From positions 1,741,501 through 1,805,500 of the forward strand of contig VICG01000006.1 in the NCBI GenBank assembly GCA_008692225.1: a DNA stretch of 64,000 nucleotides. Reading direction: 5' to 3'. Positions 1,227 through 62,336 of this stretch are shown in pieces. This DNA comes from Monilinia fructicola (Eukaryota > Ascomycota > Leotiomycetes > Helotiales > Sclerotiniaceae). How positions within the stretch are numbered: the stretch's first letter is position 1; the number at the start of each line of letters is the position of its first letter. The notes beneath the pieces are model-generated. The model did not search any database, had not been told where the DNA came from, and saw only the letters and a program-made list of their open reading frames with translations. The position numbers were made by a program, and so were the translations under genes.

Positions 1227-1421
1227 TTATTCTGCTCTATTATATATGTTTTCCAAAACTATATAATCTTTCAATTTTATAATCCAAAAGCGTATATCTG
1301 ATTTTCCTTTATTAAAGGTTAATAATGCTTTAAATTTAAATTTTTTTTTTATATTAATAATACCATTAATTATATAAATAAGGTTTACGTTTAGATCTAC
1401 TATCAATTTGCGAATTTCCAT
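1227..1421 (-). pseudogene. Gag fragment of LTR element
   Basis: A 64-codon open stretch with a motif of the form F-K-A-L-L-T-F-N-K-G-K-S-D...W-I-I-K-L-K-D-Y-I. It resembles the Gag segment of fungal Ty3/gypsy elements in which a PxFxGxRxKLxxFLxQLxxYI-like block opens the capsid region. Further downstream on the same strand an L-L-T-I-F-K-G-L-K string resembles the capsid LIxQFRRGLK block. The homologous part of copy 2 is even more decayed. Not functional. Confidence 0.4.
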
Positions 1422-2400
1422 TGGTAGTTGTTATATTGATCTGATATTTATTGATCTAGTATAGTATTGTAAGGTAATTTTTTAATCTTCTGGAAGATTA
1501 GCTACAATCTTATACGGATTTAGCTAAAAGTTTTTTAATTATAAAAAATCTTTTTTCTTTTTCATAGTTTTTTTCTTTAAATGCTTTTATTTTGCGTTTT
1601 TATTGGATTATAATAATTTGGGATTTTAATAATATGTTTATATTCAATAATAGATATTGAATTTAATGTTAATTATACTTAGAATTATATTTACTAAATT
1701 CGGCTTTTATTTCTTTATTAACCTTATTTTGCTTTTTAATAAGGTTATATATATTTAAAATAGGGTTAATTAAATATCTATCCTTTTTGTTGAAGGCTTT
1801 TGAATATGGAAAAGTTTCGAAAAATAACCTAAATAGTATTATAATGTAATCTTAATCTTAACAAAATAAAAAAAAGGATCGAAACAATAAAAAGTTTAAC
1901 AATAATAATGGTTATACTTTTGTTTTAAATAAATACTTTCTTCTAGATTTTGAAAAGTTTAAAATAAAAGATTTTAAATTATTATTATTAGGTATTATTT
2001 TTTTGCCTTTGCTTTTTTGTTTGTTTTTATTATTAAATATAATTTTTTTTTTATTATTATTCAATTATAATTCTTTGAATTGGTTTTGGTTTATATTTGG
2101 GTTTATATTTGGGTTTATAATAACGATTTGGTTATTGTATTGGGTTTAGCTTTGTAAATTTAGCATATTATTTTCTGGGATATATTATTTGCATTGGAAT
2201 AGAGTGAATTATTTAATTCGATTATAGTTCTATAATTGATATTATGATTTCATAAATTTAAAGTGTCTTTAAAGTATCTTTAAATTAATCTAAAAGTTTT
2301 CGGGGTTTTATTTGAATAAAAGAATTCTTTTAATAGAATTAGTTTAATAATGTTTAGGTTTAGTTAACGAAACTCTTCAATTTTAAAAAATAAATAACTT

Positions 2401-2544
2401 TGTAACGAAGTATAAAAAAAACAAAGAGATTAACTAAAATAATGTAATTATTTATAAAGAAAAAAAGAAAGGATTGAAGATCCTTTTTATTTAAGTATTA
2501 GCTTGAATGGTTATATGACCCTTGTCTAGGGTTGCTTCCTGACA
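2401..2544 (-). repeat. LTR-like terminal repeat, shared by copies 1 and 2
   Basis: On the minus strand this 144-bp segment begins TGTCAGGAAGC and ends CTTCGTTACA. The 5' edge is supported because homology with 5404 stops exactly there. The 3' edge is a guess from the TG...CA rule. Confidence 0.45.
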
Positions 2545-5260: not shown

Positions 5261-5404
5261 TATAATAAAATATAAAAAAACAAAAAGGTTAATTAAAATA
5301 ATGTAATTATTTATAAAAAGAAAAGGAAAGAATTAAAGATCCTTTTCATTTAAATACTAGCTCAAATGGTCATATAATCCTTGTTTAGGGTAGCTTCCTG
5401 ATAT
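5261..5404 (-). repeat. LTR-like terminal repeat, outer copy
   Basis: This 144-bp segment aligns end to end with 2401-2544 and has more C-to-T/G-to-A changes (TGACA has become TGATA, and the TGTAAC core has become TATAAT on the plus strand). Confidence 0.45.
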
Positions 5405-6418
5405 ATTATAAAATAATAAAACTTTTAATAATATATATATAAATTATAGAAAATAAACTCTTTTTTAAAAGGAAATATTTTTATAACGTTTTTATAAAAA
5501 TGATTTTAAAAACTATTTTAAAAACTATATTATTTATTATATTTTTAAAATTATAAATATCTCTTATTTTATAATATTTTATTAATAATATATTGAAAAA
5601 TATTTATAATTTTTTAAAAAAAATCTATCTTTTAAATTTATTCTTTAAATTAAATTATTTATTATTAATAAATAATTTTAGTCTTAAAAAAATAAAACGT
5701 TTTATATATAATAATAAACTTTACAACTAATAGAAATATAAGAAGATTTAATATTCTATTTTCTCAATAGTTTAATAAATATAAATCAATTAATAAAATA
5801 TATTTATAAAAAGTTTACTATTATAAATTTTATTAAAAAATATAAATTATTTTTAATAATACTTTTTAATAATTATATTAATAAAAAGAAAGTTTATTAT
5901 ATAATTATTATTATTATAAAAGTATATATTAAGAGTTATAGTTATAGCTTATTATACACCTTACGTTTTTTATATTAAAAACCTCTATTTTCTTAATCTT
6001 TAATATCTTTAATAAATTATTTAATAATATAAATTCTTTTATAATTTTTAAATAAATATATAAAAAATTATTAGAAATTTTATAAAAATAAGCTTATTTT
6101 TTTATAATTTTTTTTAAGAAATATTAATTCTATAAAATTAAATAATATAAAATTCTTAAAAAAATCGCTTATTTTATATAGGAAAAGCGTTATATAGAAG
6201 ATTTTTTAAAAAAGTATAACTTTTTAAATAAAATAAATAAAAATAAACGGTTTTATATTTTATATTTTACTAATCTTAAAATATAATTAATAAAAATTTT
6301 AAAAAAATATATAAATAATTATAGAAGTTATTAAAGATTTTTAGCATTTATTAATAATTATATATAAAAGTTCTGATTAAAATTTAAAAAATATATATTC
6401 ATTTTTTATAGAGTGATT
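5405..6418. other. AT-rich decayed DNA, no gene recognised
   Basis: Very AT-rich sequence between the tandem LTR copies and the boundary motif. Plus-strand frames around 6190-6400 give lysine/asparagine/tyrosine-rich strings that could be a RIP-destroyed transposase, but I cannot identify a family. No RNA gene or intact frame seen. Confidence 0.5.
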
Positions 6419-6501
6419 AACATATTAAAATGGCTGTTTTTTAGTGTGAAATGCTGGCTAAATAAGGGGGGGGGTTGGCGAGAAGTAGGGTAGGCGACTT
6501 A
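6419..6501 (+). repeat. AT-block boundary motif, copy A
   Basis: About 85 bp aligning with 26181-26264 in the same orientation and with the reverse complement of 15803-15880. The shared core reads ATGGC-GTTTT, AAATGCT, a run of G, GAGAAGTAG, then GGCGACTTA. It sits at the switch from AT-rich to balanced DNA, with the GGCGACTTA end facing the balanced side. It could be the terminal inverted repeat of a decayed DNA transposon. Confidence 0.6.
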
Positions 6502-6854
6502 TCTATCTACCTATCTATGCTAACACGGAGGAAAGCCGATGAGAGGTTTGGGGATGGGGGATTATGGGCGCTTGCTTGTTTGGTGTTGGGACGTTTGATG
6601 TTGATGATTTTCTTTTTCACGTCTCTTGCATGATGGCTCACGTGCATGGGGGCAGGTGAGAGGCCTCACTGGAAAATGATGTGGAGGTGATGATTGGTGG
6701 TGGTGGTATTTTTACCTGGCCATTTGGATGAAGGGAGGGGTTTGGCGTGCCGTTGCCGTTGCCGTTTCCGTTTCCGTTTCCCTTCCCCCGGGTATCGAGA
6801 ACGAAAAGTGAGTCAGAGCAGAGTGTTGTTGGAGTATGGACCTGGTAGTAGGTA

Positions 6855-6938
6855 GCCAGTCGGAGGGAGCCAGTCGGAGGGAGCCAGTCGGAGGGAGCCA
6901 GTCGGAGGGAGCCAGTTGGAGGGAGCCAGTTGGAGGGA
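6855..6938. repeat. 14-bp minisatellite, about six copies
   Basis: Tandem unit AGCCAGTCGGAGGG, repeated about six times; the last copies carry a C-to-T change (CAGTTGGAGGG). Confidence 0.85.
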
Positions 6939-8527
6939 GTAAGTGATCAATGATCCTGATCGTGATCTTGATGGTGATGTAAGAGACGGGAGGATCACTG
7001 GGCGGAATATGACGTGGATGTTGTTGATATTGGGAATGTTGCATCTTGTAGGGTGCATGTTGTAGTTTGCATGTTGGATGTTGCATGTGTCATTTACTAG
7101 GTAGGTAGGTAGGTACACCAGTGGTATGGCTGACCGAGATTCGATATAATACCGCGAGTACGAGTAGTCCAATAACAACATCAATGTCGCCTGTCGTATC
7201 CTCATCATTCCCAACTGCAATGTTTTTCTACCTGCCTGTACCTACTTGCTATAGGAGATCTCCGAAATACCGTACCGTATTTCATTCGGTTGGTCGGTCG
7301 ATGGGAAAGGCTTCGTACGCTTCGTACTAGCTGAGTGAGGTGAGGTTGACCGACCCAGCAAGTTAGTACTTTGTACCTCTGAGAGTACAGTATAATTATT
7401 GATGATATACATAAAGGGCCGAGAAAAGAAGGCTGATGAGGGGACTGGGCGTTATTTTGATGTCTCTTCCCCTTGGTACGCTGGGAACGCCGGTAAGACG
7501 GTAAGACGGTAAGTAAGTACGATTATAAAATGGTAAGATGGTAATAAGTTTGGCGGCTGGAACATGCAACTTCGCAGCTTCAACCCTTTTAATCCTCTGT
7601 TCGTACTGTAATTATGACCGACCACCTGGGTATATTCATGTATTCTCGATTTCTCAATTTTTCAATTTCTCAATTTCTCAATTTCTCATGTATCTTATGT
7701 ATCCAATGTGTCATCCTGTAACCCATCTCGGAACCATTGTATAATGTAATGCATCTGACTGGTCGTCCTCCATCGGCCACTGACCATTTGGGGAAAGCAC
7801 GCTCCATCGCAGCCGAAAGTATTAGTAAAGAATTCGATTTTTCACGTTGATGCTGATGTTCTTCTTCGGGGAAACTCTCCACATCATCCAGGACCGACCA
7901 ATTTTCTTCCCACCATCACTTTCTGCCGTTTCAATCAACAGTAAAAGTACTGTAGCACAGTAAGGTTACGGTCCCCCGTACTCCATATATCTCAACCTTA
8001 GGTCGGCCCGTCGTTAACTCCGAAGACGACCTTTCTCTTTTCTGACTGGACCCTTCAGGAACGAGATGAGGAGGAGAAAAGGGAAGGGCGGACGGACGGA
8101 TGAACGAACGAAACGAACGAACTTACTTGTGCCATACGTACGGAGAACAGCGAACGGTACAAGTATCTTCCTCGTCCTCTATTCACTTCACCCAAGTCAG
8201 CATTTCTGGACGCCGTCTTTTCTTCTCCGGCCTTCCCTGCTCTTCGTCATGGACTTGTTAGCAACGAGCAAAAGCTATTGGACTTGTGTTATTCCTTAGG
8301 GGAAAACGCGAGTAATCTCCTGGACGTCTGATGGATGGATGGGTGATGTGGAAGGACTGGAGAGGAGTGAAGTATGGGAGTGGAGCATTCCATGTGTACA
8401 GGACAGTGTGCACTACTGTACAGTACAGTACTTAGTCTGCATGAAATATTTCTTTGTATTGCCAGGAGAGTAGCCTGCCTGTAGTTTGGATTGAAAACTA
8501 CCCATATCGATCCAGAGAGGATTGGTG

Positions 8528-15880: not shown

Positions 15881-16551
15881 AAATACCTTGTTGAAAAAAT
15901 TAATATATATAATATTTTATAAAGTTTTTATTAGAGCTTCTTGATATATATATATATATATATAATCTTGATTAGATTTTCAAGATGTTCAAATCTCTGC
16001 GATTTTTTAACCTCTTTTTTTATAAGAAGTAGTGTAGTGTAGGGTAGTGTAGTGTACTATAGTATAGTATAGAGCTGGAAAAAATTAGAATTTTCGGTTC
16101 GCGATTACGGGCTATCGGGATTGAATGCGAAATCAAGGGTTTGGAAATGAATTGGTTTTGAGTTTTGCGAAGAAATTGTTGATGATGATTTATTGAAATT
16201 TTTAGAGAATGGTAAAGTTGATCTTGATTGAGTTTAATTAGTGATTATTATTATAATATGTTATTATTTATAAGTGATATTTGATATAGATTATTAGATT
16301 TTAACGGGAAATTTTTTATAGAAAAGATTTATTTATTTCTTATAGGTTGTTATATATAATTTAAATAGCTTATTGATAATATCTTTATAAATAGGTTTTA
16401 TAAAAAATTTATATAAATTGTTGATTATTATTCTTGTTTAAGGATTATAATTCTTTTTTTAAAAAAGTTCTAATTTTATACGTCATTTCTATATCAATCT
16501 AAAACTAATAATTTTAATTTTAATTTTTTATACTCGGGCGGTATAAGAAGG
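15881..16551. other. AT-rich DNA with short repeats, no gene
   Basis: Contains a TA run near 15944-15963 and a GTAGTGTAGTGTAG-type repeat near 16027-16070. No coding frame. Confidence 0.5.
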
Positions 16552-16704
16552 TGCCATGGGGGGAATGGGAGCCTAAGGCATCCATCGAGTTAAAGGCTAT
16601 ATATATAGCTCCTCCCTTATAGTTAGCTCTTTTTTTCTCTTTATAGTTTATAATTTTAATAAAGTTATTCGATACCCTATAGTTTTTCGTTCTATTTTGT
16701 AATA
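16552..16704 (+). repeat. 153-bp LTR-like sequence, left copy
   Basis: Starts TGCCATGGGG and ends TTTTGTAATA (ancestral CGTAACA by comparison with the other copy). It aligns with the reverse complement of 25982-26134 over its whole length, including the shared block GCTCCTCCCTTA-AGTTAGCTC and CTCTTTATAGTTTATAAT. Differences are mostly transitions. Confidence 0.6.
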
Positions 16705-16779
16705 AAGTAAACTATTTATTAATGAGTGTGGCCTATCGAATAGATTATAAGCTTTAATATATATATATATATAAATATA

Positions 16780-17521
16780 TTAAAAACATTATTATCGGCT
16801 TTTAATAAGTATTCTAGCTTTTAACGAGTACTCTAGCTTTTAACGAGCGTGATATTAAAAGTATAGCTTTAACGATTACACGGATATTAATACTATATAT
16901 AAATATATAGCTGGTTCGACTTTTAATAAGTATTAAAATAATATTAAGGTATAGTTATAAATAGCTTCTAACGAGTATTTAGATTTTAATGCTATGTTAT
17001 ATTATAATTGATTTTGACTTTAAACGAGCATTTAAGAGCATTGTATTTACAGCCGGTTTTGCTCTTTCCCTAGCTCCTTTTATGGTTTTTTTTTAATTCT
17101 AGTTTCTTTTTTAACTCTTTTCTATTATTAGTTTTCGAAGGGTATTCTGCTTTTTCTATTAATGGTTTTTAAAAAGTATTTTTATTTTTTAATATTAATA
17201 ATTCTTTAAGAGTATTCTATTAATAGCTTTTTAAAAATACTCTATTAAATAGTTTTTTAAGAGCATTTTTATTTTCAATATTAATAGCTCTTTAAGAGTA
17301 CTTTTATTAATAGCTCTTAAAGAGCATTCTTATTTTCGAAATTTTCAATTTTTTAAAAAGTATTCTTAAATTCGAAGTTTTTAACTTTTAAAGAATATTT
17401 ATATTTTTAATATTAACGGTTTTTTAAGAATATCTCTATTAATAACTCTTAAAGAGCATTCTTATTTTCGATATTAATAGCTCTTTAAAAGTATCTCTAT
17501 TAATAACTTTTAAAGAGTATT
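16780..17521. repeat. Degenerate palindromic minisatellite, left part
   Basis: First AGCTTTTAACGAGTACTCT-like units, then (from about 17.15 kb) 40-45-nt units built round the palindrome GCTCTTTAAGAGC, alternating with ATTCTTATTTTCG and TATTAATA. The same array resumes at 24249, so the retrotransposon at 17522-24243 inserted into it. Confidence 0.7.
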
Positions 17522-17686
17522 TGTGAGAGATTGATTGTAATAAATTAAGATAAGGATTTGTAAAAGTAAGCGGAGCCCTTTTTATGGGCCTTGCTTACTT
17601 AAATTAAGCTAAGCTAATCTAAGATAAACTAGACGAATTAGGCTAATATGGTTATATAACCATAAGATTGATAATACATTGTAATA
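17522..17686 (-). repeat. LTR of the Ty3/gypsy element (3' LTR)
   Basis: On the plus strand it starts TGTGAGAGATTG and ends TTGTAATA. It matches 24079-24243 base for base apart from transitions, and has the same 165-bp length. Confidence 0.85.
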
Positions 17687-20159
17687 AATGTTATTAACAG
17701 AAAATACTTTATTCCAAAGTATAAAAATAAAAAAAGAATAAAGAAAATATATTGTATAATCTTTTGCTATTTTCTATTATTTTATTTCTTAAAAATCTTA
17801 ATAACTTTTATTAGAATATATTTTATTATTTATTATTTATTCTATTTTATAGTTTTTCTTTAATATTATAACTAAATACTTTATTATAACTTTTTTATTT
17901 CTTTTATATTGTTTTTGTTTATATAAAATTTAATTAATAATCAATTTTAAATTCTACAAAATTTCTTATACAAAAGGTTGTTAATAGAGGTTTTTAATAA
18001 AGTTTAATAAAAATTTAAAATATACAATATTGATAATTGGATATACTTTTATTAATTTAAATAATTTGATTTAATACACTAAATAATTTATCTTTTCCAA
18101 TATTTTAAAAAATTCTATAAATTGCTATTCAATTTTAATATTTTGCTTTACAAAATTAAACATATTATAATTATGATAAAGTTTCAATGAAACCTAATTA
18201 TTAATTTTGAAGAATATTAGCTTATAATAACATTTATTATATTAACGTTTTATATATATTACTACAAATTTTATTACATTAATAGTTTTAATTAAAATAG
18301 ATTTGTATTTTCTATTAATTAATGATTTAATAAAATAAATTTAAATTAAAAGTTTTATAAGTTTAAATTTAGCTTATAAAAAAACTATCTCTAAAAATTC
18401 TATAATAACTTTAATTACAATATTAAAAAACTTTTTAATTTGTAAATTATACATTACTATAATAATAGATATATTAATTTTATATAAAATAAAGTTTGAT
18501 AATGTAATAATTAAGTAAAACAAAATTTTAGATTAACAAAAAATATTTTTTATAATAATTAAATAATAATATAAAATAATCTTAATTGTTTAATTAGTAT
18601 GTTTATTAGCATTATCAATTTAAAAGTATTAAACAATAATAAAAAGTAATTTAATGTTTAATAAATTTATAATATTCTTTTATATTTTAAAAATAAACTT
18701 TTTATTTTGATTTAATATTATTATTTAAGGAACTTTCTATAAAACTTGTAATAAATATACAATTAAAATATTTTCTTATTAAATTATTATTCAAATTGAT
18801 TTATTTGAAATTAATATAATAATTTTTAAAAATTTATTAATGATTAATAAACTGTAATTAAACAAATCTAAAGTAGATTAAAATAAAGCAAATATAAAAT
18901 TAATAAAGATTATATAAAAAATATATAAAGAATTAAAATTAATTATAAATTACTATAAGGTTAATAACATAGAATTAATAATACCCTATATTAATAATAA
19001 TAATATAAATAAATTTAAATCTTTTTTAAAAATGTTAAAAACATAAAAATTAATTAAAACCTTTTTATAAATTCTATTATAATTAAAATGTTTAAACTAA
19101 TTATATACATAATTAAAAACTTTAGTCTTTAGCAACTTAAATATTATTATATAAGCCTATAAATAAATCTAATTAATTTTTATATAAAATATTTTATTTT
19201 TGAACTTAAAGAATAATTCTATAGTATTAATTCTTAATTTAAAATTTTCTTTAATTTATTTAATAAAATTAAAAATTCTAATATTTATATATATAAGCCT
19301 ACTTTAACTTTTATAACTAAATTTTACTAATCTATAAGATAATTATAGGATACTCTTAAGATTCTATTAAATCAATATTGTAAATTAGTTTAATTATAGA
19401 ATTTTACTACTTATTAATTATAATATTAATAATATAAAGTTTTAATAAAGTATTTAATATAATATTTAATTATCCTAATTTATATTATACTTTAAATTAA
19501 AATTTAACTAGATATTCGAAATTTTGGAGATATTATAAATTTAATTTAACCAATAATAAAAAATGTTTATTAAAGTTTGGGTTATTATTTGAATAATAGC
19601 AAAATAATTAATGTAAATAATAATTAATAATTTTAAAAGATTTGATAAAATACCAGATTCTGCTAATAATCCAATACAAACCTATAATCTTTAATTTGAT
19701 AAGCTAATAATTAGATTTAACAATTATAATTAATTTAAATAAAAATATAATAGGTATTATCAACTTTTAAATTAAAGATTTAATATTAAAGTAATAAATT
19801 ATACTTTTAATATTATTCTTCAAAATATTAATATTAATATATAATCTTTTCTCTGAATTTATATAATATAAAAATAATAGATTTTTTAAAGGTATATTGC
19901 AATATATTAAATAAATCTTTTTTTTTCTTTGTGATATTTTTGAATCTTATTAAAGTTACTTTTCTTTGTTGTTTTATTTTAATAATTTTATTTCTGTTAT
20001 ATTCTTAAAGTATTTGATTTAGTTTAACTTTTTGTTTTTATAATATAACAGAAAGTTTTGTATAATAAAAAATGTATTATTATTGTAAATATCTAATAAA
20101 GCCCAAATAATATTTTAATTACTTTAAGATTCACAAGAAAATTAAAGTTTTAATAATTG

Positions 20160-20700
20160 CTAGCTTATCTGTAGTAAAAGCTAAACCAAGAATATTGATT
20201 TTCTAATTAAAAAGCATAATCGAAAAATAAGCGAAAAAGCATTTTTTCGGATTTAAAATAATATAATATTGTTTTAATTGATAAAACATTTGCTAAAGAT
20301 AATTAAAGTATTCTTTAAAGCTATAACTAAAAATAATAATATTATTAATATAGGCTTTTACAAATTCACGTTTTATATAAAAAATGAAATCAATCCGATA
20401 TTAAACATATACTAAAGAATTCCGAAATCTTATTATAATGCATATAAATGTTTTCTAATCATAATACAATAATATAATAAGAAATTTTTGGTATTCCTCC
20501 TTAATACATTATTAATAAAAAAAACTAATATAATTAATTATAGAAATAAATGAGCAATTAATAACTATTATAATAATATTTATTTGAATAAAGATTAAAT
20601 ATATATCAAAAATAGTAATTTAGTTTAAAGCTTTAATATCTATAATAATATAACCTTTTTTACTAATGATTTCTTTTTCGTTCATAACATTTTTATAAAT
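20160..20700 (-). pseudogene. Reverse transcriptase remnant (Ty3/gypsy)
   Basis: Minus-strand translation gives KKGYIIIDIKALN-stop-ITIFD near 20670-20600, equivalent to the RT block with VVVDIRGLNxITxxD. Farther along come FVKAYINNIIIFS (20341-20352 encodes YINN in place of the catalytic YIDD) and ILNPKKCFFAY, equivalent to the thumb-side LNPxKCxFGY block. In-frame TAA/TAG codons interrupt it. The sequence pattern is that of fungal gypsy elements; it is not functional. Confidence 0.75.
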
Positions 20701-23700
20701 ACAAAAAATAGAAAAATTAAAAGGGATCAATATTATAATCCATTTAAACTAACCTTACTTATATAATTAATTAAATATTTTATTAATAAACTTTTAATTC
20801 ACTTTATTAATTAAATAAATCTTAACTTTTCCTAACTTAAATTTTTTCTACCAATTTTCGCAAAAATCGATATATATTTCTTTAACCTTTAAAAACCTTA
20901 CCTTAAAAACCTAATAAATCCTTTGCAATCTTTTTACATTATAAAATTAATTACAATTATTTTTTAAAATCCTTATTATTAATACAAATCCCTAAAAATA
21001 ATTATACTATTTAAAAATATTATTTCCTATCTTGAAATCTCTCTAAATTGTTTCCAAAAGTTTTATTAATTTATAAAACTATAATTATAATAATCGTTAA
21101 TAATCTCTTAATTAAAAGATATTTAATAAAACCCTATATAATAACTAATATTTAAGTAAGGTAGTATACACAAAAATTATCTATAATTATTATTGTTTAA
21201 GTATTAGAATTAATTATATCCCTAAGTTTAATACATTTGTGAATAATAATTTTTTTATTACCAAAATTCTTAATTATAACTAATTTGTATATACTAGATA
21301 TCAAAAATGCAAAAAAACTAAAATTATTTTAATATATAAACTTATAAATTATATTATACTTTAACAAAACAAGTTTATCGTTTTTTTTATTTGAAATAAC
21401 AATAAAAGTGCAAGAATAAAATGGAATTATTAGTTTTTTTTTAGCAAAAATGGGAATTTTATATTTAACAAACTTTACTAGTGTAAAAACGTTAACTTGT
21501 AAACCTATATACTAAAATAATGTTATTAATTGATTATCCAAATCGATAATCTAACCTTTTACAATAGTGATATTAAGGCTTAATAAGATTTGTGTATCCA
21601 ACTCGTTAATAATATAAATTTTATAATAGAAATGTATAAAGAGACTATTAATAGTAAATAAAAAAAAATCCAAATTTATAAAATTATTAATATTATAAAA
21701 TTAAGACCCCAAACCACGAATTTTTAAAAACTTTTCTATAATATGAATTTTAATAATAGAATATATTTCAAATAGAAATTTTCTATTAATCAAACTTATA
21801 CTATAGCTAATATTAAAACAAACAAAATAAATATTATTTTAAAAACTATCCAATATTAATATAATCTTAGTATATTTCCAACCTCTAAAAGCGTAACCTA
21901 ATAATAATTTGCTTTTTAAAGCGGTAAATTAAATAATTTATAGCAAAAATATAACGTAAAAAATTATTTTAGTAAATTCTATTAAAATAATTCGATTAGA
22001 ATTATTGATAATATAAAAAATTAAAGGCTTAATAACTTGTAACTAATTAATAATTTTAAATCTAAAGTATCGTATAATAAATTTAAAACTTTGAATATTT
22101 ATTATAAAAATATAAATATAATTTATTATTAAATAAAAAAAATTCTTTATATATAAAATACTTATAATGGTTTTTATTTATATGAATATTGAAAATAATA
22201 GAAAATAAAATAAAATTATGCTTAGAAATATAAATTAAAAAAATACCCCTTAACTTTTGATTTTCTTTATAAAATTTTGAAGTATTAATATTTAAGCAAT
22301 AAATGATTTTGGACCCTGTATTTCTAGCAATTTTCAATATTAATAGCTTATATAGCCCAATACTAGTATAATAAATTAAATGAACATCTTAAATATTTAA
22401 ATCTCTATCACCACCTTTAAATTCTTAATTTAATTTATTTTTATTATTCTTTAAGCTTTAATAATAAATTTAATTATATAAATTATTCTTATTATACTTT
22501 ATAATGATAACTTTATTATCAGTTTTTTCAATTATTTTACTAATCTTAAAGATTACTTAAACTTCAAATTTTCGGTTACAACAAAAATTTTTTCTTTAAT
22601 ATAACTTTTTTTTTAATAATATAATATTTTTTCTAATATTATTTTTTAATTTATTAATATCCAATTTTTTATTATTATAGAATTTTTTGTTAAATAATAA
22701 AAGAAAAAAGAAAAGAAAAAGGTTCTATAATCGTTTTAGTAATATAAAATATAAAAAAACTATTTATTATTATACTAATTGTATAATATATTATTTAAAC
22801 ATTAAATATTAAACCAATCATCTTTTTTCTATTTAATCTATTTTATGAAAATTAACAAACTTATTTCAGAAGTAAAGACAAAAATATAAATTTATAACTT
22901 AATAAATAAATAATAATAAGTAATAAGTATTTGAATATACTCGAATTCAATTGTATTAATGTTATATCTAAAAACCATTAATTTTTAAATAAACTTTTTA
23001 GAATTTTTATATTTTTATATATTACTAATAGTAATACTTCAATCTTTTAAGCTTTTCCAGTATAATTCCAAATAACATCCTAAAATAAATCTTTAACTTA
23101 ACACTCCAATTCTTAATACTAACTTTAAATCCTATATATATAATATTTAAGATTTTATTTATATACTACAGCTTAGCTTTACCCTTAAAATATTAATTAA
23201 ATTAAAAAGCAATAATATATAAAGCAAATAATTCATTAATAATGTTAGCAAATTTTGCTTTAATTTAAGTAGTAAAGGAAAAAACATTATAATAAATGGT
23301 TTTATTATTAATAGTTTTTATAAATAATTTTGATTTATTATCAAAATTAAAGTAATTTAAATTTTATAAATAAAACCAAATAAATTCATTAATTGCAACT
23401 TGCAAAAATAATTTTTAAAATAATAATAAAAAACTATTAAAATTGATTTATTATAAAAAAATAATAGCATTAAATATATTTATATTCTTAGTATCTAATA
23501 TAAATATAAATAAAAGTATAAATAATAAAAAAGATCGATTTAATATTTAAAAAAATTAAGGTTTATACAATAATGATAGATTATTTAAAGAATCCATAAG
23601 CTCTTATACAAATTCTATAAACTTAATATAATTATTTTATTAATTAATAAAGATTTATAATACAAAAATAATATTGATTAATATAACAAATATATATTCA

Positions 23701-24058
23701 AATATTAAAAAAAGTGCAGATAGTTTATTTACTCCACCGTAATTTTCAAGAATTCAAATAATAACTTTAATTTGATTTATTAATAATCTATCTCTAACTT
23801 TAAATCTTTAAATAAAGAAAAGATTAACAAATTATACTTTTTTAAAGATTTAAAGCTGAATTTGATTATAAAATAATACTTTGAATGTAATAATACCACT
23901 TATATTATATTAAAATATAATAAAATCGTATAAATAATATAACAAAAGAGACTTAAAAAGAATAATTAATGTATGAAACAAAGGCTAAAAAAAAGGTTCA
24001 ATCAAATAAATTGTATCTATCCCTAATGTTAATATATATAGTTGATAATAATAAACAA

Positions 24059-32093: not shown

Positions 32094-34859
32094 ATGTCAC
32101 GAGTGTTTGAGAGATACCGCTCTGGAAATCCTACCGTGGTTTCAATAGGCACTCTCTCTCCCGAACAATCAGTTATAGGGTCACACATTCCATTGGCTAC
32201 TAGTGAAAAGCTAGAAGAAAAGGATGGAGCAATATCAAACGCTCGAGATGAACAAGAGGCAGAGGCAAATCGTAAATTAACAGCATTTGAGCAACTTCAT
32301 CGATGGGATCCGAATTTAGGTCAAGATCAATTGGAGGAAATAGATGATGCTATCAATAGACGGGATGCAAATGTCGAGGGAAGGATCTATGATGAAGTTT
32401 TCGAGAACTCACCCTACCCCGAAGTAAGCGACCAAAGTCCATGGTTTTCACGATATTTCTAAATTAGAAACAGGTTCGTGCAGCTGTGAGAAATTATGAT
32501 GAAGATCTTCCATGTAACACTATTCGAGCATGGGTGATAGGACTCATCCTCACCACCATAGCATCTGGTTTGAACTCCCTCTTCTCACTTCGGGCCCCTT
32601 CTTTAACGATAACGTCCATCGTCGTGCAGATGGTCGCATACCCGCTTGGAGTAAGCTGGACTATGATATTCCCCGATCGAACCTACAACACATTTGGAGT
32701 AAAATGGAATCTCAACCCTGGAAAATTCAACCTCAAGGAACACGGTCTTATAGTCATCATGGCCAATGCAGCTTTTGGTCAGGGCGTGGCATATTTTACT
32801 GACACTCTGACTGCTCAGCGAGGTTTCTACGGACAAAACTTTGGTTGGGGTTTCAATATCTTGCTTGCGTTAACAACTCAATGTATTGGATTCGGAATGG
32901 CAGGAATGATGCGGAAATTTCTTGTCGAGCCTGCATCAATGATATGGCCACAGAATCTGGTCAGCACCTCATTCATTTATGCCTTGCATGATCACAGCAA
33001 AACAGACCCTTCTAAGTCCAACGGTTGGTCTATAGCTAGATATAGATATTTCTTCTATGTTTTCACAGGGTCATTTGTCTGGTATTGGTTTCCGGGCTAT
33101 ATTGCGAACTTTCTGAGCGTTTTTGCCTTTGTTACGTGGATTCGTCCTAAAAATGTAATTATTAACCAGGTCTTTGGTGGATGGACGGGCATCTCTCTTA
33201 TTCCGATTACTTTTGATTGGACTCAGATTACTGGTAGGCCCTTGGCTCAAAGACTTGCAGCTTCATTAATACTGGCTAACCTTTCTCTAGGATATAACTT
33301 ACAGTCTCCACTCATCCCACCCTGGTTTGCAATTGCCAATACCGCAATTGGTACAATCTTTTGGTTCATGATTGTAACAGCTGGTATTCATTTCTCTGGT
33401 CAATGGTATGGGGAATGGCTACCTATCTCCGACTCGAACAGTTACGATAATACAGGGAAACATTACGATGTATCCAAAATTTTGACCCCGGAATATACCC
33501 TAGATATTGAAAAGTATAAAGTATGTATATTCTCGCTTAATGTGTAACCTCAGGGGTATGCTGACACTGATGCGATTAGGCATACAGTCCTCTGTTTTTA
33601 TCAACCACTTTTGGCCTTACGTATGGTCTTTCTTTCGCTGCGATTTCTGCAGTGATATTCCATACTATTCTATTTCATGGTCAAGAGATTGTAAGTATTT
33701 TTAACTCTGATTCGAAATTCATGAACCTGACGCCATAACCCACAGTGGATACTGGCTCGAGCCATCCGTGGAAGTTTAGACGACAACCACACTAAGATGA
33801 TGCGCAAATACAAACCTGTGCCCGGTTGGTGGTACATAGCCTTCTTCCTCGTGATGACGGCTATGTCTCTCGCAGCGGTATGCGCTTACCCTACTCACTT
33901 GACATGGTGGGCGTTAATTATCGCTCTCCTAATGTCTCTTGTGTGGACCATTCCGGTCGGAATCATCTACGCAACCACCAATATTCATTTAGGCCTCAAT
34001 GTCTTCGCCGAGTATGTAGTCGGGTATATGCTTCCAGGTCGTCCTGTAGCACTAATGTTGTTTAAAACATACGGTTACATTACCATGAATCAGGCACACG
34101 CCTTTCTATCCGATTTGAAGCTCGCTCATTACCTCAAGATTCCGCAGAGACCAGTTTTCTGGGGTCAATTAGTAGCGACAATTTGGAGCTGCCTTGTTCA
34201 ATTAGCTGTTTTAGAGTGGGCATTGGGCCATATCGAAGGAATCTGTACCAGTGACCAGAAAAACAATTTCACTTGCCCCGGTCCTCGGGTCTTCTTCAAT
34301 GCCAGCGTGATCTTTGGGTTAATTGGCCCTCAACGTATCTTCAGCACCGGAGCCATCTACGGCTCTCTACAATACTTCTGGCTAGCTGGCGCACTTCTTC
34401 CATTCCTCATATATTTCCTTTCACGGGCATTCCCCAAATCAAAGATACGATATTTCAACGCTCCGATATTCTTCGGTGGCACGTCTGAGCTTCCTCCCGC
34501 TACACCATTGAGTTATCTGAGCTGGTGTCTTTATGGATATATCTTCCAGAAATATATCAAGAATCGATGGAGAGGGTGGTGGATGCGATTTAACTTTATC
34601 ACGAGCGCGGGACTTGATGCAGGGTTGGCTATTTGCACCATTGTCATTATTGCGGCGTTGAATTTGACGGGGACTGGGTTTCCGGATGTGAGTCACTTTC
34701 TCTTCTTTTGGTTTAGATGGAACATAAAATGCTGATTAGATTCGTCAGTGGTGGGGTAATAGGACACCGGAAAATACGATGGATTATCTAGACACGGCGG
34801 TGCAGAGGAAGGTGGCTCCTGGGGAGATTTTTGGACCCCCCAAAGGAACTTGGGGGTAG
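32094..34859 (+). CDS. Oligopeptide transporter, OPT family (isp4/Opt1-like)
   Basis: Proton-coupled importer of small peptides (OPT superfamily, PT clade), expected in the plasma membrane. Five exons: 32094-32423, 32474-33520, 33580-33690, 33746-34687, 34749-34859. All introns are 50-61 nt GT-AG and give a continuous frame of about 846 residues, the normal length. Family signatures are present: SPYPEVR across the first splice junction (residues about 105-112), NPGKFNLKEH (about 191-200; consensus NPGxFxxKEH) and KIPQR (about 627-631; consensus KIPPR). A hydrophilic N-terminal arm of about 120 residues, with a WDPNL block, is followed by some 12-15 hydrophobic segments. The GPP-KGTWG C terminus precedes the stop. 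No operon-like partner. No sign of damage. Substrate specificity (peptide, glutathione or siderophore-peptide) cannot be read from the sequence. Confidence 0.93.
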
Positions 34860-36056: not shown

Positions 36057-38609
36057 TTAACTTTTGGGAGTTAATAACACGTATAGTCCCCTTAAGTCCG
36101 TTAGCAGATTTATGGGAAATTCATCTTCTGATACATCTTCTTCTTCTTCTTCAAGCTCTTTAATCCTCATTTCAATCATCTGGCGAGGCGTTGTGGAGTC
36201 ATCAAAGCGCCAGGCTGTTGAGGATGTTCGGATTTGATAGGAATCTTTCATAAAGCAATAATGCTTTAGGTGCACCAGAGGACTCTCTCTGCAACCATCG
36301 TGTATATCGACTAAATCCGTGTCGAGATTTTGCTCCGATCCAAAACAACAATTGGATCTGCTCCATGTTTCACGAAGAGCTCATAGATATCGTAGGTAGC
36401 CTCGCCTTCTACTACAAACAGAAAGCCACGTAACACTAAATACTGCCAGCAAGATACCCCTGATAGGTTTCATTAACTGAATGGCCTGATTGGATAAGCT
36501 TTGAGATGAGGTCGAGCCATGACTTGTACATTTGAGATGATTTAAGAGTGGTTGGTGAACAAGCAAGTGTGCATAGAAGTAATGGTGGCCTATCTTGTTC
36601 TGTCGATGGTGGAAGAAAGTTTTTGCTGACGTAATAGACGAGACCATATGAAGCAGCAAGACAAATTAGGTCAAGTCGCGGTTCAAGAACACATAGTCCC
36701 TCCGAACCCTCCCTGTCTTCTACCATATAGTTGTATTTATCATGCCAATCTGGATCGCACTTGGAGAGAACTTGATCCAAAATTCTGACTGAACTAATAT
36801 ACGCTTGGGCGTACTGTTTCTCATTGGGACGATTCCATTGTCTTATGTTCTGATCAATAGACTCCGCAATCAGGAAGAAAGACATAATTCTTGAACACGC
36901 CTGTTCAAAACATGACGTGTGGAAAGTCCAAGGTGGCCGGAATTGAGTGTTTAGGACTAAACTCCCCAGATGATACCGAAGCTGTATAGTTCGTACTCGA
37001 ATCCAGTTGCTTTCTTCAGCCAGCTTGTATGAAGGGGAAAAATTTATGTCCTCTCTTATGAATTCGCGAAGAGATCGATGAACTAGCCGTACAGGATACG
37101 CGATGATATTTGATTCTGATGAATTTGCAAGACTAGGACCGATAACTTCTAGGATGTTTCCACAAATCTTCTGCAAATCAGCTCCTGCTTTTATGCACCG
37201 AGCCTTGTTGTTGGATCCCCCTCTTGATTCCACATAAGATAATCTCTTAATGCCATCGAGAGACTCACTTACAAATGAAAGATCAAACAATGTTAATTCG
37301 GAATGAATTTGGGAATTAGAGTATTGACTGTGCTTATGTGGGAAACAAAACAAAGCTAAATAATCCCAGACATCGTCAGCCTTGATACCTGATGTGCGAA
37401 AAATCCTCTCGATAATCGAAGAATAGAGATCCCGTACGTCTCCAGACTGATCATTGATACATTGTTGAAGTGCATTATCATGTTCGCCGTCATCGATTTT
37501 GTCTTTTATCTCTCTCAATGTCAATGCTGCCCAGAGAAATATCCCATCGGCCTTGCCAGCAATATCATTAATCAGTGAATCTTGAACTGAACCAAACTGA
37601 AAGTGCTCTCGAGTTTCCATAATCGAAGGGGTTTTCAATTCCGCTTTGACATAATTCAATATGTCGTTCTTCGTGTAATCTTGTATCTTGAACCCGTGGG
37701 CTTCTTGAAGAAGGTGATCTGTCCCATTTTGTGGCCTGCTAGAAACACAGAGTCTTACGTTGAGAGATGAATTCGCGGCTTCTTTAACCAGAAGCTTCAA
37801 GAATAAAAGGTAATCTCTTCTGGTTGTACGATCCTCGCATTCGTCTATGCCATCAATGAATATGCATATTGTCGTGTCAGAGTCCAATTTTCTTATAACA
37901 TCTATCAAGGCTTTTTCCAATGTCTCCAACTCCCACATAAAATCTTGCATTCCACATTGTCTTCTAGTATTCTCGAAGATTGTAAAAATGGTCTGAGCCA
38001 AGCCAGGAAAATTTTATAAGAACTGGCGAAGGAGCGAGGAGAGACATCCTCGGGAAGACGTTTCATTTGGTGTGCCAAGTTCATGGAAGAAATAGCTGAT
38101 GATAGTTATAGGTGTGCTACCTGTAGTCCTAGATACTAATTCATCACATATGAACTTCATCAGAGTAGATTTTCCGGCCCCAGGCTTTCCTCGAATGTAA
38201 TAGAAGTTACTTGGAAGTCCGTGTTTCGCCCACCTGAGAAAACCGGGGCTTCGGGAGCTCTCATCCCAGATCCAATTGAATGTCTCTCCATAGGCCGATT
38301 TAATTTTCTGTGCTCGTGGATTGGCACTGGTGAGCCCTAAACTTTTGATACAATCATCTCTTTCCTTGTCATTCTGAGTAGCATGTGTATTATTTGAACC
38401 TTCACGCCCCATATATGTTAGCACTTCAATGGCAAAACTACTCGTGAGGCACTCTTACCAGTAGCATTATGACTGTAATTTGTAATGTTGTAGTAACTGC
38501 TTTGAAACGTGTTTCCGTTGTGTTGTCTAGAGTTCCCAGCCGAGATATTGCCACGGTAATTGGATGAGCTTCCTAGATCTAAGTCATTAATATAGATGCG
38601 TGATCCCAT
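36057..38609 (-). CDS. NACHT-domain NLR with N-terminal amyloid-like motif (reading frame interrupted)
   Basis: STAND/NLR receptor of the fungal HET type, probably cytosolic. Start at 38609. A 59-nt GT-AG intron (38458-38400, CTAAC branch site) separates a 50-codon first exon from the NTPase. Residues 15-36 carry the amyloid-like motif Y-x-G-N-x3-G-x5-N-G-N, matching two copies in the divergent neighbour. Next come an NPHP3-like N-terminal block (A-Y-G-E-T-F-N-W-I-W), Walker A GKPGAGKST (about 121-129), Walker B IFIDGIDECE (about 230-238) and a winged-helix-like region. The C-terminal part has ankyrin-like pieces (HGADP; LIQSGHSVNETY). Breaks: an in-frame TAA at 38016-38014 (codon 179), and from 36436 to 36057 the ankyrin-like end runs through other frames, with a possible very short intron near 36423-36454 and a single-base loss near the HGADP codons. 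It may be a null allele, a pseudogene, or consensus error. Confidence 0.75.
38502..38567 (-). other. Amyloid-like signalling motif in the NLR N terminus
   Basis: Encodes NLR residues 15-36 with the pattern N-Y-R-G-N-x3-G-x5-N-G-N. The fixed positions Y4, G6, N7, G11, N17, G18 and N19 coincide with both C-terminal repeats of the HeLo protein at 39704-39769 and 39800-39865. Confidence 0.75.
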
Positions 38610-39034
38610 TTTTTCAATTTTGCTAGCAAAGTAAGTAAAAAAGTAATCGGTTGATAAATTCTCTATTTTTGCATTTGGGGCAGGGCACTACTCGGACTAA
38701 ATCATCGAAAGGTGGGTTGGAATTCAGACTCGAACTGCTGCTTTTGTGTAATGATTTGCCTTAAATTCCGGGTAACACATGCACCTCTCTCTACTAGGTA
38801 GACATAGCCTCACCTACCGTGTACAGAGTATGACCAAACTACTAGACACACGGCATGATGCTATGATCACTCCATATCTGTTGTATCGATCATTTTGGAA
38901 AATCTAATTTCTATTATATAATGTGCCGAGGATCCACAATCTCACTGTAGTTCTTTCCACTGATCTCACAGCCTCATTTGTCTTTGCAATACATTTCTAC
39001 ACAATAGAACAATCAAGTATTTCATCTCAGAAAT
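38610..39034. promoter_or_regulatory. Shared divergent promoter of the NLR / HeLo pair
   Basis: 425 bp separate the two start codons. Near 38885-38925 there is AATTTCTATTATATAATG (TATA-like, for the plus-strand gene), and a pyrimidine-rich leader precedes the plus-strand ATG. A weak tRNA-like B-box near 38725-38745 is not convincing. Co-regulation is inferred from geometry only. Confidence 0.45.
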
Positions 39035-39889
39035 ATGGAAGTCACAACCGGTGTTGTTGGACTTGTCAGCGTCGTCACTAGCTGCATTGAGCTTACCAAA
39101 ACGATTCAACTGGGCCGCAACTTCGCAAATGATCTTGATACATATGAATTGAGATTAGACCTCATGAAATGTCGATTCAGCGTATGCTGCGAATCCATTG
39201 TGCAATATTGTAACACAAATGGAGAATCTACAATCATCGAAAGCGCAACATGTGTTTTTGACAAGGTTCAGAGCCTTTTCAAACAAGCACAAGAAAAGTC
39301 GGATGCGTTCAGAAAAGGGGCCCAAAGCAAAGACTCCTTGAAGCTTGCTACCAGCTCTGATGAGATCTCACTGTCTCAAAAGGCTCGTCATTGCTGGAAC
39401 ACAATACAGAACAAGAATCAAGAAGAAACCAAGAAGATACAGAAAATGTTAAAGACAAAAGACAAAATTCGTTGGGCTGTTTACGAGAAAGAAACATTCA
39501 ACAAACTGGTAGAGGATATCACGATATTGGTTGATGGCATGGAAAGAATGTTTCCTACAGCTGTCGACATTTTCCATCGTCAAATAATGCAACGAGCAAT
39601 CGACGATGTCCTTGACCAAGAATATGTAAAGGAAATCACCGAAGCTGCAAGAAAGGATGATCGCGTGTTGCATGATATTGGGAAGAAAAAGCTTCGAGCT
39701 TGTAACAACAAGTACATTGGAAACCGACAGACGGGTGCTAGCAAGGTTGTGAATGGCAATATAACTGTCGCTGGTTGGGCAGGAGGCAGGCAAGAAAGCA
39801 GCAACTATTACGAAGGTAACGTAGCGGAAGGTCACGGTAGGACGGTCAACGGAAATCAATATGGAGGTAAAGGTATCTTTGATGATTAG
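39035..39889 (+). CDS. HeLo-domain protein with C-terminal amyloid-like repeats (HET-S-type cell-death effector)
   Basis: Single exon, 284 residues, close to HET-s/HET-S size. Residues about 1-215 fit the HeLo domain: a glycine-containing hydrophobic N-terminal helix (VVGLVSVVTSCIELT), then QLGRNFANDLDTYELRLDL, equivalent to the conserved LGRxFxxDxxxxxLxLD block, then an all-helical region. Residues 224-245 and 256-277 are two copies of a ~22-residue motif Y-x-G-N-x3-G-x5-N-G-N, 32 residues apart, as in prion-forming domains that stack into a beta-solenoid. In the known family (Podospora HET-S with its NLR NWD2), the receptor motif seeds the effector's repeats. The folded amyloid then exposes the N-terminal helix, which inserts into and permeabilises membranes. 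The frame is intact, unlike the NLR partner. Function here is by analogy; no activity can be read from sequence. Confidence 0.85.
   Translation: MEVTTGVVGLVSVVTSCIELTKTIQLGRNFANDLDTYELRLDLMKCRFSVCCESIVQYCNTNGESTIIESATCVFDKVQSLFKQAQEKSDAFRKGAQSKDSLKLATSSDEISLSQKARHCWNTIQNKNQEETKKIQKMLKTKDKIRWAVYEKETFNKLVEDITILVDGMERMFPTAVDIFHRQIMQRAIDDVLDQEYVKEITEAARKDDRVLHDIGKKKLRACNNKYIGNRQTGASKVVNGNITVAGWAGGRQESSNYYEGNVAEGHGRTVNGNQYGGKGIFDD
39704..39769 (+). other. Amyloid-like repeat 1 of the HeLo protein
   Basis: Residues 224-245: K-Y-I-G-N-x3-G-x5-N-G-N. Lies directly after the lysine-rich end of the HeLo domain (GKKKLRACN). Confidence 0.75.
39800..39865 (+). other. Amyloid-like repeat 2 of the HeLo protein
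   Basis: Residues 256-277: Y-Y-E-G-N-x3-G-x5-N-G-N. It ends six or seven residues before the stop, as expected for a C-terminal prion-forming domain. Confidence 0.75.
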
Positions 39890-62210: not shown

Positions 62211-62336
62211 TGGAGACTCCCGGGATCGAACCGGGGACCTTTCACACACACACACACAGCCCCCTCAACCCGGCACCCCACCGGCCACGAGCAGAAGAAA
62301 TGCGAAGCGAATATTATACCACTAAACTAAATCCCC
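62211..62336 (-). tRNA. tRNA-Ala (anticodon CGC) with a 54-nt intron
   Basis: On the minus strand the gene starts at 62336 with GGGGATT, which pairs with AGTCTCC at the 3' end (acceptor stem) and includes the G3:U70 wobble that identifies alanine tRNA; the discriminator base is A. The D arm has A14 and GG in the loop. The anticodon stem TTCGC pairs with GTGAA, and the loop reads T-T-C-G-C-A, giving anticodon CGC (codon GCG). The T arm is CCCGG-TTCGATC-CCGGG. A 54-nt intron (62300-62247), rich in GT repeats, sits just after the position-37 A, the normal site. The CCA end is not encoded. Confidence 0.88.

What the first reader, a model, noticed from the sequence alone, without database searches (positions are those of the whole stretch)
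36057..39889. Divergent NLR / HeLo-effector pair: candidate amyloid signalosome controlling cell death
A NACHT NLR (minus) and a HET-S-like HeLo protein (plus) are head to head, 425 bp apart. The NLR N terminus carries one amyloid-like motif and the effector C terminus two, all in register. This is the gene order and motif layout of known fungal NLR-to-HeLo prion-seeded cell-death systems. The motif sequence itself (Y-x-G-N-x3-G-x5-N-G-N) may be a variant not yet described; I could not search for it.
Basis: partly seen in the sequence, partly recalled or inferred. Interest (0 to 1): 0.9.

Follow-up and report, generated by a model that had tools for sequence, protein, structure and literature searches.

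The report
Fungal death-switch pair with broken receptor
Two neighbouring fungal genes look like a relative of the known Podospora system in which an immune receptor sets off a cell-killing protein by passing on an amyloid shape; here the killer gene is intact, the shared amyloid motif is an unusual variant, and the receptor gene carries a stop that breaks it.

Summary
A 284-residue HeLo protein (39035-39889 +; PF14479, E 5.4e-26) lies 425 bp head-to-head from an NPHP3_N/NACHT NLR (start 38609, minus). The NLR carries one copy and the effector two copies of a 21-residue motif; shuffles never reach this similarity (0 of 1000). 120 homologues align across it in one frame, a 98%-identical copy elsewhere has no stop there, and a frame change near 36460 is likely. 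The motif departs from the published HRAM rule: Asn replaces hydrophobic core residues at positions 8 and 18 in all three copies. Best reading: a HET-S/NWD2-type amyloid signalling pair with a variant motif and an inactivated receptor in this strain. The parallel with Podospora het-s strains, where nwd2 is also a pseudogene, leaves open a het-s-like prion haplotype. Two of three diagnostic HeLo sites fit that; membrane-segment hydropathy and residue 33 do not.

The parts
39035..39889 (+). HeLo effector gene, 284 aa, intact, no intron in the reading (coordinates include the stop)
   Evidence: translation; one open frame; P0001 cluster holds 4 member sequences
39044..39625 (+). HeLo domain (PF14479), residues 4-197
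   Evidence: E 5.4e-26, 92.1 bits; PDB 2wvo/2wvn/2wvq E 6.6e-16 to 1.4e-13
39701..39763 (+). amyloid-like repeat r1, residues 223-243 (HRAM positions 1-21; Y227 = position 5)
39764..39796 (+). 11-residue linker between r1 and r2 (3 of 11 Gly)
   Evidence: published linker range 6-18 in 154 of 155 sequences, Gly-rich (PMC4518210)
39797..39859 (+). amyloid-like repeat r2, residues 255-275
   Evidence: in register with HET-s r2 in phmmer to 2kj3, E 5.9e-4
39860..39886 (+). C-terminal YGGKGIFDD tail, counterpart of the HET-s semi-flexible aromatic loop
   Evidence: alignment; role of this loop in HET-s: PMC4055769 passages
38610..39034 (.). 425-bp divergent intergenic region
38459..38609 (-). NLR exon 1 (from M1), carries r0
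38508..38570 (-). amyloid-like motif r0, NLR residues 14-34
   Evidence: exact pattern match; 0 of 1000 shuffles
38400..38458 (-). putative 59-nt intron, GTAAGA...TGCTAAC...AG
   Evidence: sequence signals only; no transcript seen
38014..38399 (-). NLR exon 2 as far as the TAA; includes the P-loop GKPGAGKS
   Evidence: PF24883 profile positions 2-79; 132 of 132 residues identical to P0002
38014..38016 (-). in-frame TAA (nonsense codon) inside NPHP3_N
   Evidence: 120 homologues align across it in one frame
37735..38283 (-). whole NPHP3_N (NACHT-type) match, interrupted by one TAA
   Evidence: 102.7 bits, E 5.7e-28, (G000:C6:1779235-1779783)
36436..38013 (-). 525-aa open frame after the TAA: rest of the NBD and downstream STAND region
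   Evidence: PF24883 positions 103-164; 291 of 298 residues identical to P0002
36350..36460 (-). likely frame change: homologues P0004 and P0079 go on in another frame
   Evidence: same frame down to 36460 and 36472; other frame from 36457 and 36463; E 0.014 and 0.021, weak
36057..36380 (-). 107-aa open frame with an acidic stretch, possibly the 3' end of the same NLR gene
   Evidence: only short weak homologue matches; not scanned against Pfam

Best explanation
This is a HET-S/NWD2-type amyloid signalling gene pair of a filamentous fungus with a variant motif, and its receptor gene is broken in the sequenced strain. As built, the NLR would sense a ligand with its C-terminal part and oligomerise through the NPHP3_N/NACHT domain. 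Clustered N-terminal r0 motifs would then fold into one rung of a beta-solenoid amyloid. That rung would template r1 and r2 of the HeLo protein, whose HeLo domain would unfold, expose its N-terminal hydrophobic helix, go to the membrane and kill the cell. Shown here: the two genes, their domains, the three similar motifs, the homology of the effector tail to the HET-s fibril, and the nonsense codon in the receptor. Inferred: amyloid folding, templating, pore formation and the trigger. Because of the TAA in the nucleotide-binding domain, this strain should make no full-length receptor, so the effector is an orphan: latent, but perhaps still convertible by amyloid seeds from another receptor or a fused partner strain.
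For: HeLo PF14479 E 5.4e-26 and 2wvo E 6.6e-16. Effector tail to HET-s fibril 2kj3 E 5.9e-4, ungapped over r2 and the YGGKG tail. r0/r1/r2 similarity 0 of 1000 shuffles; pattern 3 hits, 0 of 100 shuffles with three; synonymous codons differ at 6 of 7 invariant residues. Two repeats on the effector, one on the adjacent NLR, linker of 11, positive charge at 15 and G19 in 3 of 3 copies, as PMC4518210 describes. Receptor lesion: NPHP3_N with 1 TAA; 120 of 121 tblastn alignments, from 120 homologues, run across it in one frame, 115 with a residue and 5 with a gap at that column; copy P0002 (423 of 430 aligned residues identical) has no stop there. The frame stays open for 525 codons after the TAA, which fits a recent lesion.
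Against: No relative of the effector or of its tail was found outside this genome (468 candidates, 13 candidates; each lists only the query itself; the search is word-based), so conservation of the pair is untested. PF11558, the Pfam HET-s prion domain, does not match (E up to 10). Hydrophobic core positions 8 and 18 are Asn in all three copies, and 10 and 16 are mostly polar. By eye no in-register r1/r2 salt bridge stands at positions 6, 11 or 13. r0 alone has no HET-s match. Single-sequence AlphaFold models are low-confidence (pLDDT 46.5 and 44.9) and show no beta-solenoid. An assembly error could explain the TAA. The 120 homologues were fetched with the read-through reading as query, so they are not an unbiased sample.
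Confidence: 0.64

Rival explanations
1. The receptor is intact in life: the TAA is an assembly error, or is bypassed by read-through, editing or an unrecognised mini-intron, and the pair is a fully working signalosome.
For: The frame after the TAA is open for 525 codons, and P0002, 98% identical, has no stop there. One nonsense codon is the only lesion that is clear.
Against: 120 homologues are collinear across the TAA in one frame, 115 of them with a residue at that column, so an intron there is unlikely. The 3' end also seems to change frame near 36460 in line with P0004 and P0079 (weak), so there are probably two lesions. Three of the other 17 NPHP3_N matches in this genome also hold an in-frame TGA, though that search ignores introns and these may be introns.
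Confidence: 0.15
2. Het-s-like haplotype: the receptor is lost and the HeLo domain can no longer make a pore, so the effector can live as a self-propagating prion that kills on fusion with a strain carrying the toxic allele, as [Het-s] does in Podospora.
For: In Podospora het-s strains nwd2 is a pseudogene (PMC4344463; PMC3321046). At sites that PMC3531502 ties to the HET-S/HET-s difference or to HET-s-like mutants, the effector has E19 where HET-s has D23 and HET-S has A23, and K77 where HET-S has E86; E86K is a HET-s-like mutant of HET-S (alignments; numbering checked).
Against: Residue 33 is Asn and not Pro. Best 19-residue hydropathy over equal aligned columns is 1.48, as in HET-S (1.38) and unlike HET-s (0.94). 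Glu also stands after the same C-I in the probable HeLo relic L004, so it is not diagnostic. The alignment is distant (23% identity), and a compensating charge change (D76 beside K77) was not tested.
Confidence: 0.12
3. The truncated NLR product (178 residues: r0 plus P-loop half) is itself functional, for example as a constitutive r0 source or a dominant decoy.
For: The reading from 38609 to the TAA with one intron is open and keeps r0 and the P-loop.
Against: The part after the TAA, with the FIDGIDE stretch and everything downstream, is missing from it; nonsense-mediated decay would probably remove such a message (general knowledge, no call). The near-identical copy P0002 reads on.
Confidence: 0.04
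4. The three motif copies are only similar Gly/Asn-rich disordered tails with no amyloid role.
For: No amyloid prediction with good confidence; core positions are polar.
Against: Tail homology to the HET-s fibril at E 5.9e-4, similarity beyond composition in 0 of 1000 shuffles, synonymous divergence at invariant sites; in 30 own-genome loci the best scores after the true copies (61-70) are 24 for an overlapping register of r0 and then 15.3.
Confidence: 0.05

Closest known systems
NWD2/HET-S of Podospora anserina (nwd2/het-S gene pair)
   Same: Divergent adjacent genes (425 bp here, 0.6 kb there), NLR with one N-terminal motif, HeLo protein with two C-terminal repeats, sequence-detectable HeLo and PFD homology.
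   Different: No WD40 repeats were matched in the NLR pieces scanned. Asn at motif positions 8 and 18. The receptor holds a nonsense codon; in Podospora the nwd2 lesion of het-s strains is a transposon scar.
HET-s-related amyloid motif (HRAM) subfamilies 1-5 (Daskalov, Dyrka and Saupe 2015, PMC4518210)
   Same: Paired repeats on a HeLo protein under 310 aa, 11-residue Gly-containing linker, G19, basic 15, glycine/aromatic tail, charge-poor r0 on the adjacent NLR.
   Different: Of the hydrophobic positions 5, 8, 10, 16, 18 only 5 (Tyr) is kept in all copies; positions 8 and 18 are Asn in 3 of 3.
[Het-s] prion haplotype of P. anserina
   Same: Receptor gene broken next to an intact HeLo-PFD gene; acidic residue at the site of D23 and Lys at the site of E86.
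   Different: Residue 33 is Asn and not Pro; membrane-segment hydropathy is HET-S-like; prion behaviour unknown.
NLR12/HRAM3-type motifs of NLR N-termini (PMC9815663)
   Same: Own comparison, not the paper's: several NLR homologues carry Y-x-N-[SN]-x3-D-x2-R-x-H-[FY]-G motifs (P0037, P0053, P0058, P0074, P0076). That these are NLR12-type is my guess; the logo was not seen.
   Different: Those have Asp at 12 and an aromatic at 18. The paper ties NLR12 to PNP_UDP effectors with a single motif, not to paired HeLo repeats.

Membership tests
HET-S/NWD2-type NLR-HeLo amyloid pair | HeLo domain protein under 310 aa | tested here: met
   284 aa, PF14479 E 5.4e-26
HET-S/NWD2-type NLR-HeLo amyloid pair | two C-terminal motif repeats, linker 6-18 residues | tested here: met
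   r1 223-243, r2 255-275, linker 11
HET-S/NWD2-type NLR-HeLo amyloid pair | adjacent NLR gene with one copy at its N terminus | tested here: met
   r0 at NLR residues 14-34; NPHP3_N
HET-S/NWD2-type NLR-HeLo amyloid pair | intact receptor able to oligomerise | tested here: not met
   TAA inside NPHP3_N; this fails for this strain's allele and does not bear on ancestry
HET-S/NWD2-type NLR-HeLo amyloid pair | homology of the effector tail to the HET-s fibril | tested here: met
   2kj3 E 5.9e-4, 2mus E 0.002
HET-S/NWD2-type NLR-HeLo amyloid pair | amyloid templating and cell death | not testable with these tools
   needs fibril and in vivo assays
HRAM1-5 | conserved G at position 19 | tested here: met
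   3 of 3 copies
HRAM1-5 | R or K preferred at position 15 | tested here: met
   R, K, R
HRAM1-5 | hydrophobic residues, in general, at 5, 8, 10, 16 and 18 | tested here: not met
   5: Y/Y/Y; 8: N/N/N; 10: S/Q/A; 16: Q/V/T; 18: N/N/N (r0/r1/r2). The text allows T at 10, and Q at 18 in HRAM4 and at 16 in HRAM5
HRAM1-5 | cluster within PAM110/130 of a named subgroup | not tested
   the 310 reference motifs (supplement file S1) and the logos could not be read
Pfam PF11558 HET-s(218-289) | profile match | tested here: not met
   no family at E up to 10 for the 69-aa tail; only 38 of 155 published double-repeat proteins match it either
[Het-s] prion haplotype | NLR neighbour inactivated | tested here: met
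[Het-s] prion haplotype | pore-dead HeLo (sites 23, 33, 86; weak membrane helix) | tested here: inconclusive
   site 23 E and site 86 K fit, site 33 N does not; hydropathy 1.48 is HET-S-like
[Het-s] prion haplotype | infectious self-propagating state | not testable with these tools
   needs transformation and barrage tests

The most novel reading that the evidence does not exclude
A [Het-s]-like prion haplotype outside Podospora. The receptor has been lost by mutation and the HeLo domain carries pore-weakening residues at two of the sites known from HET-S, so the effector can persist as a harmless self-propagating prion and act as an allorecognition trigger against strains with the intact pair. 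Its beta-solenoid would have an Asn-Asn pair in place of the hydrophobic 8/18 contact, giving a core that does not cross-seed with HET-s.
Probability: 0.1. Interest if true: 0.85.

Novelty: new variant of a known kind. Interest (0 to 1): 0.5.

Why it matters
[quoted passage not shown] anserina and as derived from the nwd2/het-S pair, with nwd2 now a pseudogene in het-s strains (PMC4344463, section 19). Another fungus with a broken receptor beside an intact HeLo-PFD gene offers a natural test of which part fails first and what then happens to the orphan executioner. Asn at both partners of the first-listed covarying core contact (8;18) of PMC4518210 would test how far a signalling beta-solenoid can move from a hydrophobic core and still template. 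It also shows that motif-and-synteny reading alone can overcall working signalosomes.

Tried and rejected
Rejected: chance similarity of Gly/Asn-rich tails; an intron covering the TAA (homologues are collinear); HeLo misassignment. Led nowhere: the effector as a whole (468 candidates) and its tail alone (13 candidates) each listed only the query itself in the protein database; PF11558 has no match; r0 against solved structures gave only a weak unrelated hit at E 1.6; both AlphaFold jobs, without alignment, were low-confidence, so no fold search was run. PHROGs, NCBIfam and PADLOC were not searched. Motif logos of PMC4518210 and PMC9815663 could not be seen (figures not held), and supplements were not available. 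My first idea that positions 8 and 18 are hydrophobic in other relatives was softened: among nine motif-like NLR N-termini that I picked by eye from the listing (120 of 208 homologues were listed; others, such as P0009, were left out, and several of the nine are close kin), Asn occurs once at 8 (P0037) and once at 18 (P0075), never at both. A first hydropathy comparison used segments of unequal length (window 1.64, HET-S 1.81, HET-s 0.94 for 19 residues); it was redone on equal aligned columns (1.48, 1.38, 0.94), with the same conclusion.
Full report
What is there. On the plus strand, 39035-39889 encodes 284 residues in one open frame. Residues 4-197 match Pfam HeLo PF14479 with 92.1 bits (cut-off 23.2), E 5.4e-26, and phmmer matches the solved HET-S/HET-s HeLo chains 2wvo, 2wvn and 2wvq at E 6.6e-16 to 1.4e-13. 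On the minus strand an NLR reading starts at 38609, 425 bp away, with a putative 59-nt GT-AG intron at 38458-38400 containing TGCTAAC (sequence signals only). The nucleotide-binding domain is NPHP3_N (PF24883).

The three motifs. Y-x-G-N-x3-G-x5-N-G-N, written as a DNA pattern, occurs exactly three times in the window, once in the NLR N terminus and twice in the effector tail, with no further match at up to two mismatches; 0 of 100 dinucleotide shuffles reach three. In 1000 composition-preserving shuffles of the 51-residue NLR N terminus and of the 80-residue effector tail, neither the NLR-effector score (54) nor the within-effector score (42) was reached (maxima 47 and 34). Pairwise identities over 21 residues are 8, 9 and 9 (r0-r1, r0-r2, r1-r2). 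Six of seven invariant residues differ in synonymous codon among the copies, which points to old copies held by protein-level constraint.

Homology to HET-s. The 69-residue tail alone matches the HET-s fibril chain 2kj3 at E 5.9e-4 and 2mus at 0.002, and nothing else up to E 10. The alignment over r2 is ungapped and runs into the YGGKG-[IF]-[FW]-D end. By it, r2 residue N257 stands at HET-s N262, R269 at R274, G273 at G278, N274 at N279 and Y276 at Y281; but N262 of the effector stands at V267 and N272 at I277. In HET-s, alanine at G242/G278, Y281, F286 or W287 lowers prion activity; core changes matter little except I231A and I277A, and V267A had no effect (PMC4055769, passages only). So of the two Asn sites in r2, the one at I277 is the more telling; in r1 it is the one at I231. 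The r0 motif alone finds no HET-s match, and PF11558 does not match the tail.

How it fits the published motif family. I read the main text of PMC4518210, without its figures or supplements. The rule there is G at 19, a preferred basic residue at 15, hydrophobic residues in general at 5, 8, 10, 16 and 18 (with T sometimes at 10, and Q at 18 in HRAM4 and at 16 in HRAM5), two repeats with a linker of 6-18 in 154 of 155 sequences, and a single charge-poor copy on an adjacent NLR (found for 98 of 155 HeLo-related proteins). Here G19 and a basic 15 hold in 3 of 3 copies; the linker is 11; r0 has two Arg and one His as its only charged or chargeable residues. The hydrophobic pattern fails: position 8 is Asn in 3 of 3 copies, 18 is Asn in 3 of 3, 10 is S/Q/A and 16 is Q/V/T. 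Positions 8 and 18 are the first-listed covarying contact in that paper. Among nine motif-like N termini that I picked from the 120 listed NLR homologues (not exhaustive), Asn is at 8 in one, at 18 in another, at both in none. An alternative in which position 9 (I, R, V) faces the core cannot be excluded. I therefore place the motif with HET-s-related motifs by homology, but do not file it in HRAM1-5.

The receptor is broken. The frame after the intron meets TAA at 38014-38016; the open frame continues for 525 codons. The genome search reports the NPHP3_N match with 1 TAA inside. I aligned the 120 listed NLR homologues (of 208 at E up to 0.001; fetched with the read-through reading as query) to the DNA by tblastn: of 121 alignments, 120 (120 homologues) span the TAA in one frame, 115 with a residue and 5 with a gap at that column. 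An intron there is thus unlikely. Protein P0002 (cluster of 3 sequences, source lgn, longest contig 15.7 kb) is identical over 132 of 132 residues before the stop and 291 of 298 after it, and has no stop there, so copies free of this stop exist. P0002 itself ends at a residue after which the window frame reads on; whether by a lesion of its own or a contig end I could not see. Near 36460, homologues P0004 and P0079 stop matching in this frame and continue almost at once in another (E 0.014 and 0.021), a probable second lesion. The 36057-36380 stretch has only short weak matches. In the genome, 4 of 18 NPHP3_N matches, this one included, hold in-frame stops (that search ignores introns, so some may be introns, and its counts are lower bounds).

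Is the motif elsewhere in this genome? As protein queries, the effector finds itself and one weak HeLo paralogue (E 0.047), and the NLR N terminus finds only itself, both at E up to 10. In the 30 loci fetched (HeLo, NPHP3_N and query hits, several of them the same place), a scan finds the three copies and otherwise an overlapping register of r0 (24) and scores of 15.3 or less; a 12-sequence profile that includes the three copies also finds only this locus at E up to 1. Its other HeLo matches (5 of 6) include two long open frames of 608 and 616 residues, L001 and L002, and a match with five stops, L004, probably a relic.

Mechanism. From the HET-S/NWD2 work (PMC4344463 passages and section 19; PMC3531502 passages and sections 13 and 22) the natural reading is ligand, NLR oligomer, r0 fold, templated r1-r2, exposed HeLo helix, membrane damage. 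The effector keeps an N-terminal hydrophobic stretch: over equal aligned columns the best 19-residue Kyte-Doolittle mean is 1.48, against 1.38 for HET-S and 0.94 for HET-s (scale values recalled; no TM predictor was at hand). An earlier run on unequal segments gave 1.64, 1.81 and 0.94. In this strain the receptor step should be missing.

The het-s parallel. In wild het-s strains nwd2 is a pseudogene with premature stops, and the authors argue that loss of one partner frees the other to decay. I asked whether the HeLo domain here also looks inactivated. By the alignments (numbering checked), the site of residue 23 (A in HET-S, D in HET-s) is E19; the site of 33 (H in HET-S, P in HET-s) is N29; the site of E86, whose change to Lys makes HET-S HET-s-like, is K77, against E in L001 and Q in L002. 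Two of three sites lean to HET-s; the hydropathy and site 33 lean to HET-S; and Glu follows the same C-I in the probable relic L004. PMC3321046 judges HET-s homologues in other fungi to be of the HET-S type by site 33, and by that site this one is too. The idea is suggestive only.

Limits. Effector relatives outside this genome: none found, although its cluster holds 4 member sequences, so conservation of the pair is untested. Structure models were poor. I found no description of this motif in the texts seen, but that rests on the searches in an open-access library and on texts without figures or supplements.

Papers and what was seen: PMC4518210 whole main text; PMC9815663 abstract, outline and sections 19 and 24; PMC5485727 abstract, outline and section 6; PMC12261475, PMC4055769 and PMC12881547 passages; PMC3531502 passages and sections 13 and 22; PMC4344463 passages and section 19; PMC3321046 passages and section 14. 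All others only in search listings.

Noticed in passing
window about 1-8000 and 16001-24000: AT-rich blocks (GC 15-17% at 1-4000 and 16001-24000, 27% at 4001-8000) between gene-bearing stretches of about 39-47% GC, as in fungal genomes with mutated repeat blocks.
   Followed up: no
window 32468-34732 (+): OPT oligopeptide transporter exons beside the NLR tail (PF03169, E 3.2e-79 and 5.9e-88).
   Followed up: partly
L004 (G000:C12:1437413-1437901): A HeLo match with five in-frame stops, probably a relic unless the stops lie in introns, with a strongly hydrophobic N-terminal segment.
   Followed up: partly
L001, L002: HeLo open frames of 608 and 616 aa; parts after the HeLo domain look kinase-like by eye only, with no family scan done.
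   Followed up: no
window 62211-62336 (-): Rfam tRNA match of 126 bp, longer than a plain tRNA, perhaps with an intron; ARAGORN reported none in the window.
   Followed up: no
P0037, P0053, P0058, P0074, P0076: NLR homologues with related N-terminal motifs of the form Y-x-N-[SN]-x3-D-x2-R-x-H-[FY]-G, of a different type from the motif here.
   Followed up: partly
P0002 (431 aa): The 98%-identical NLR copy ends early at a place where the window frame stays open, a possible independent lesion or a contig end.
   Followed up: partly
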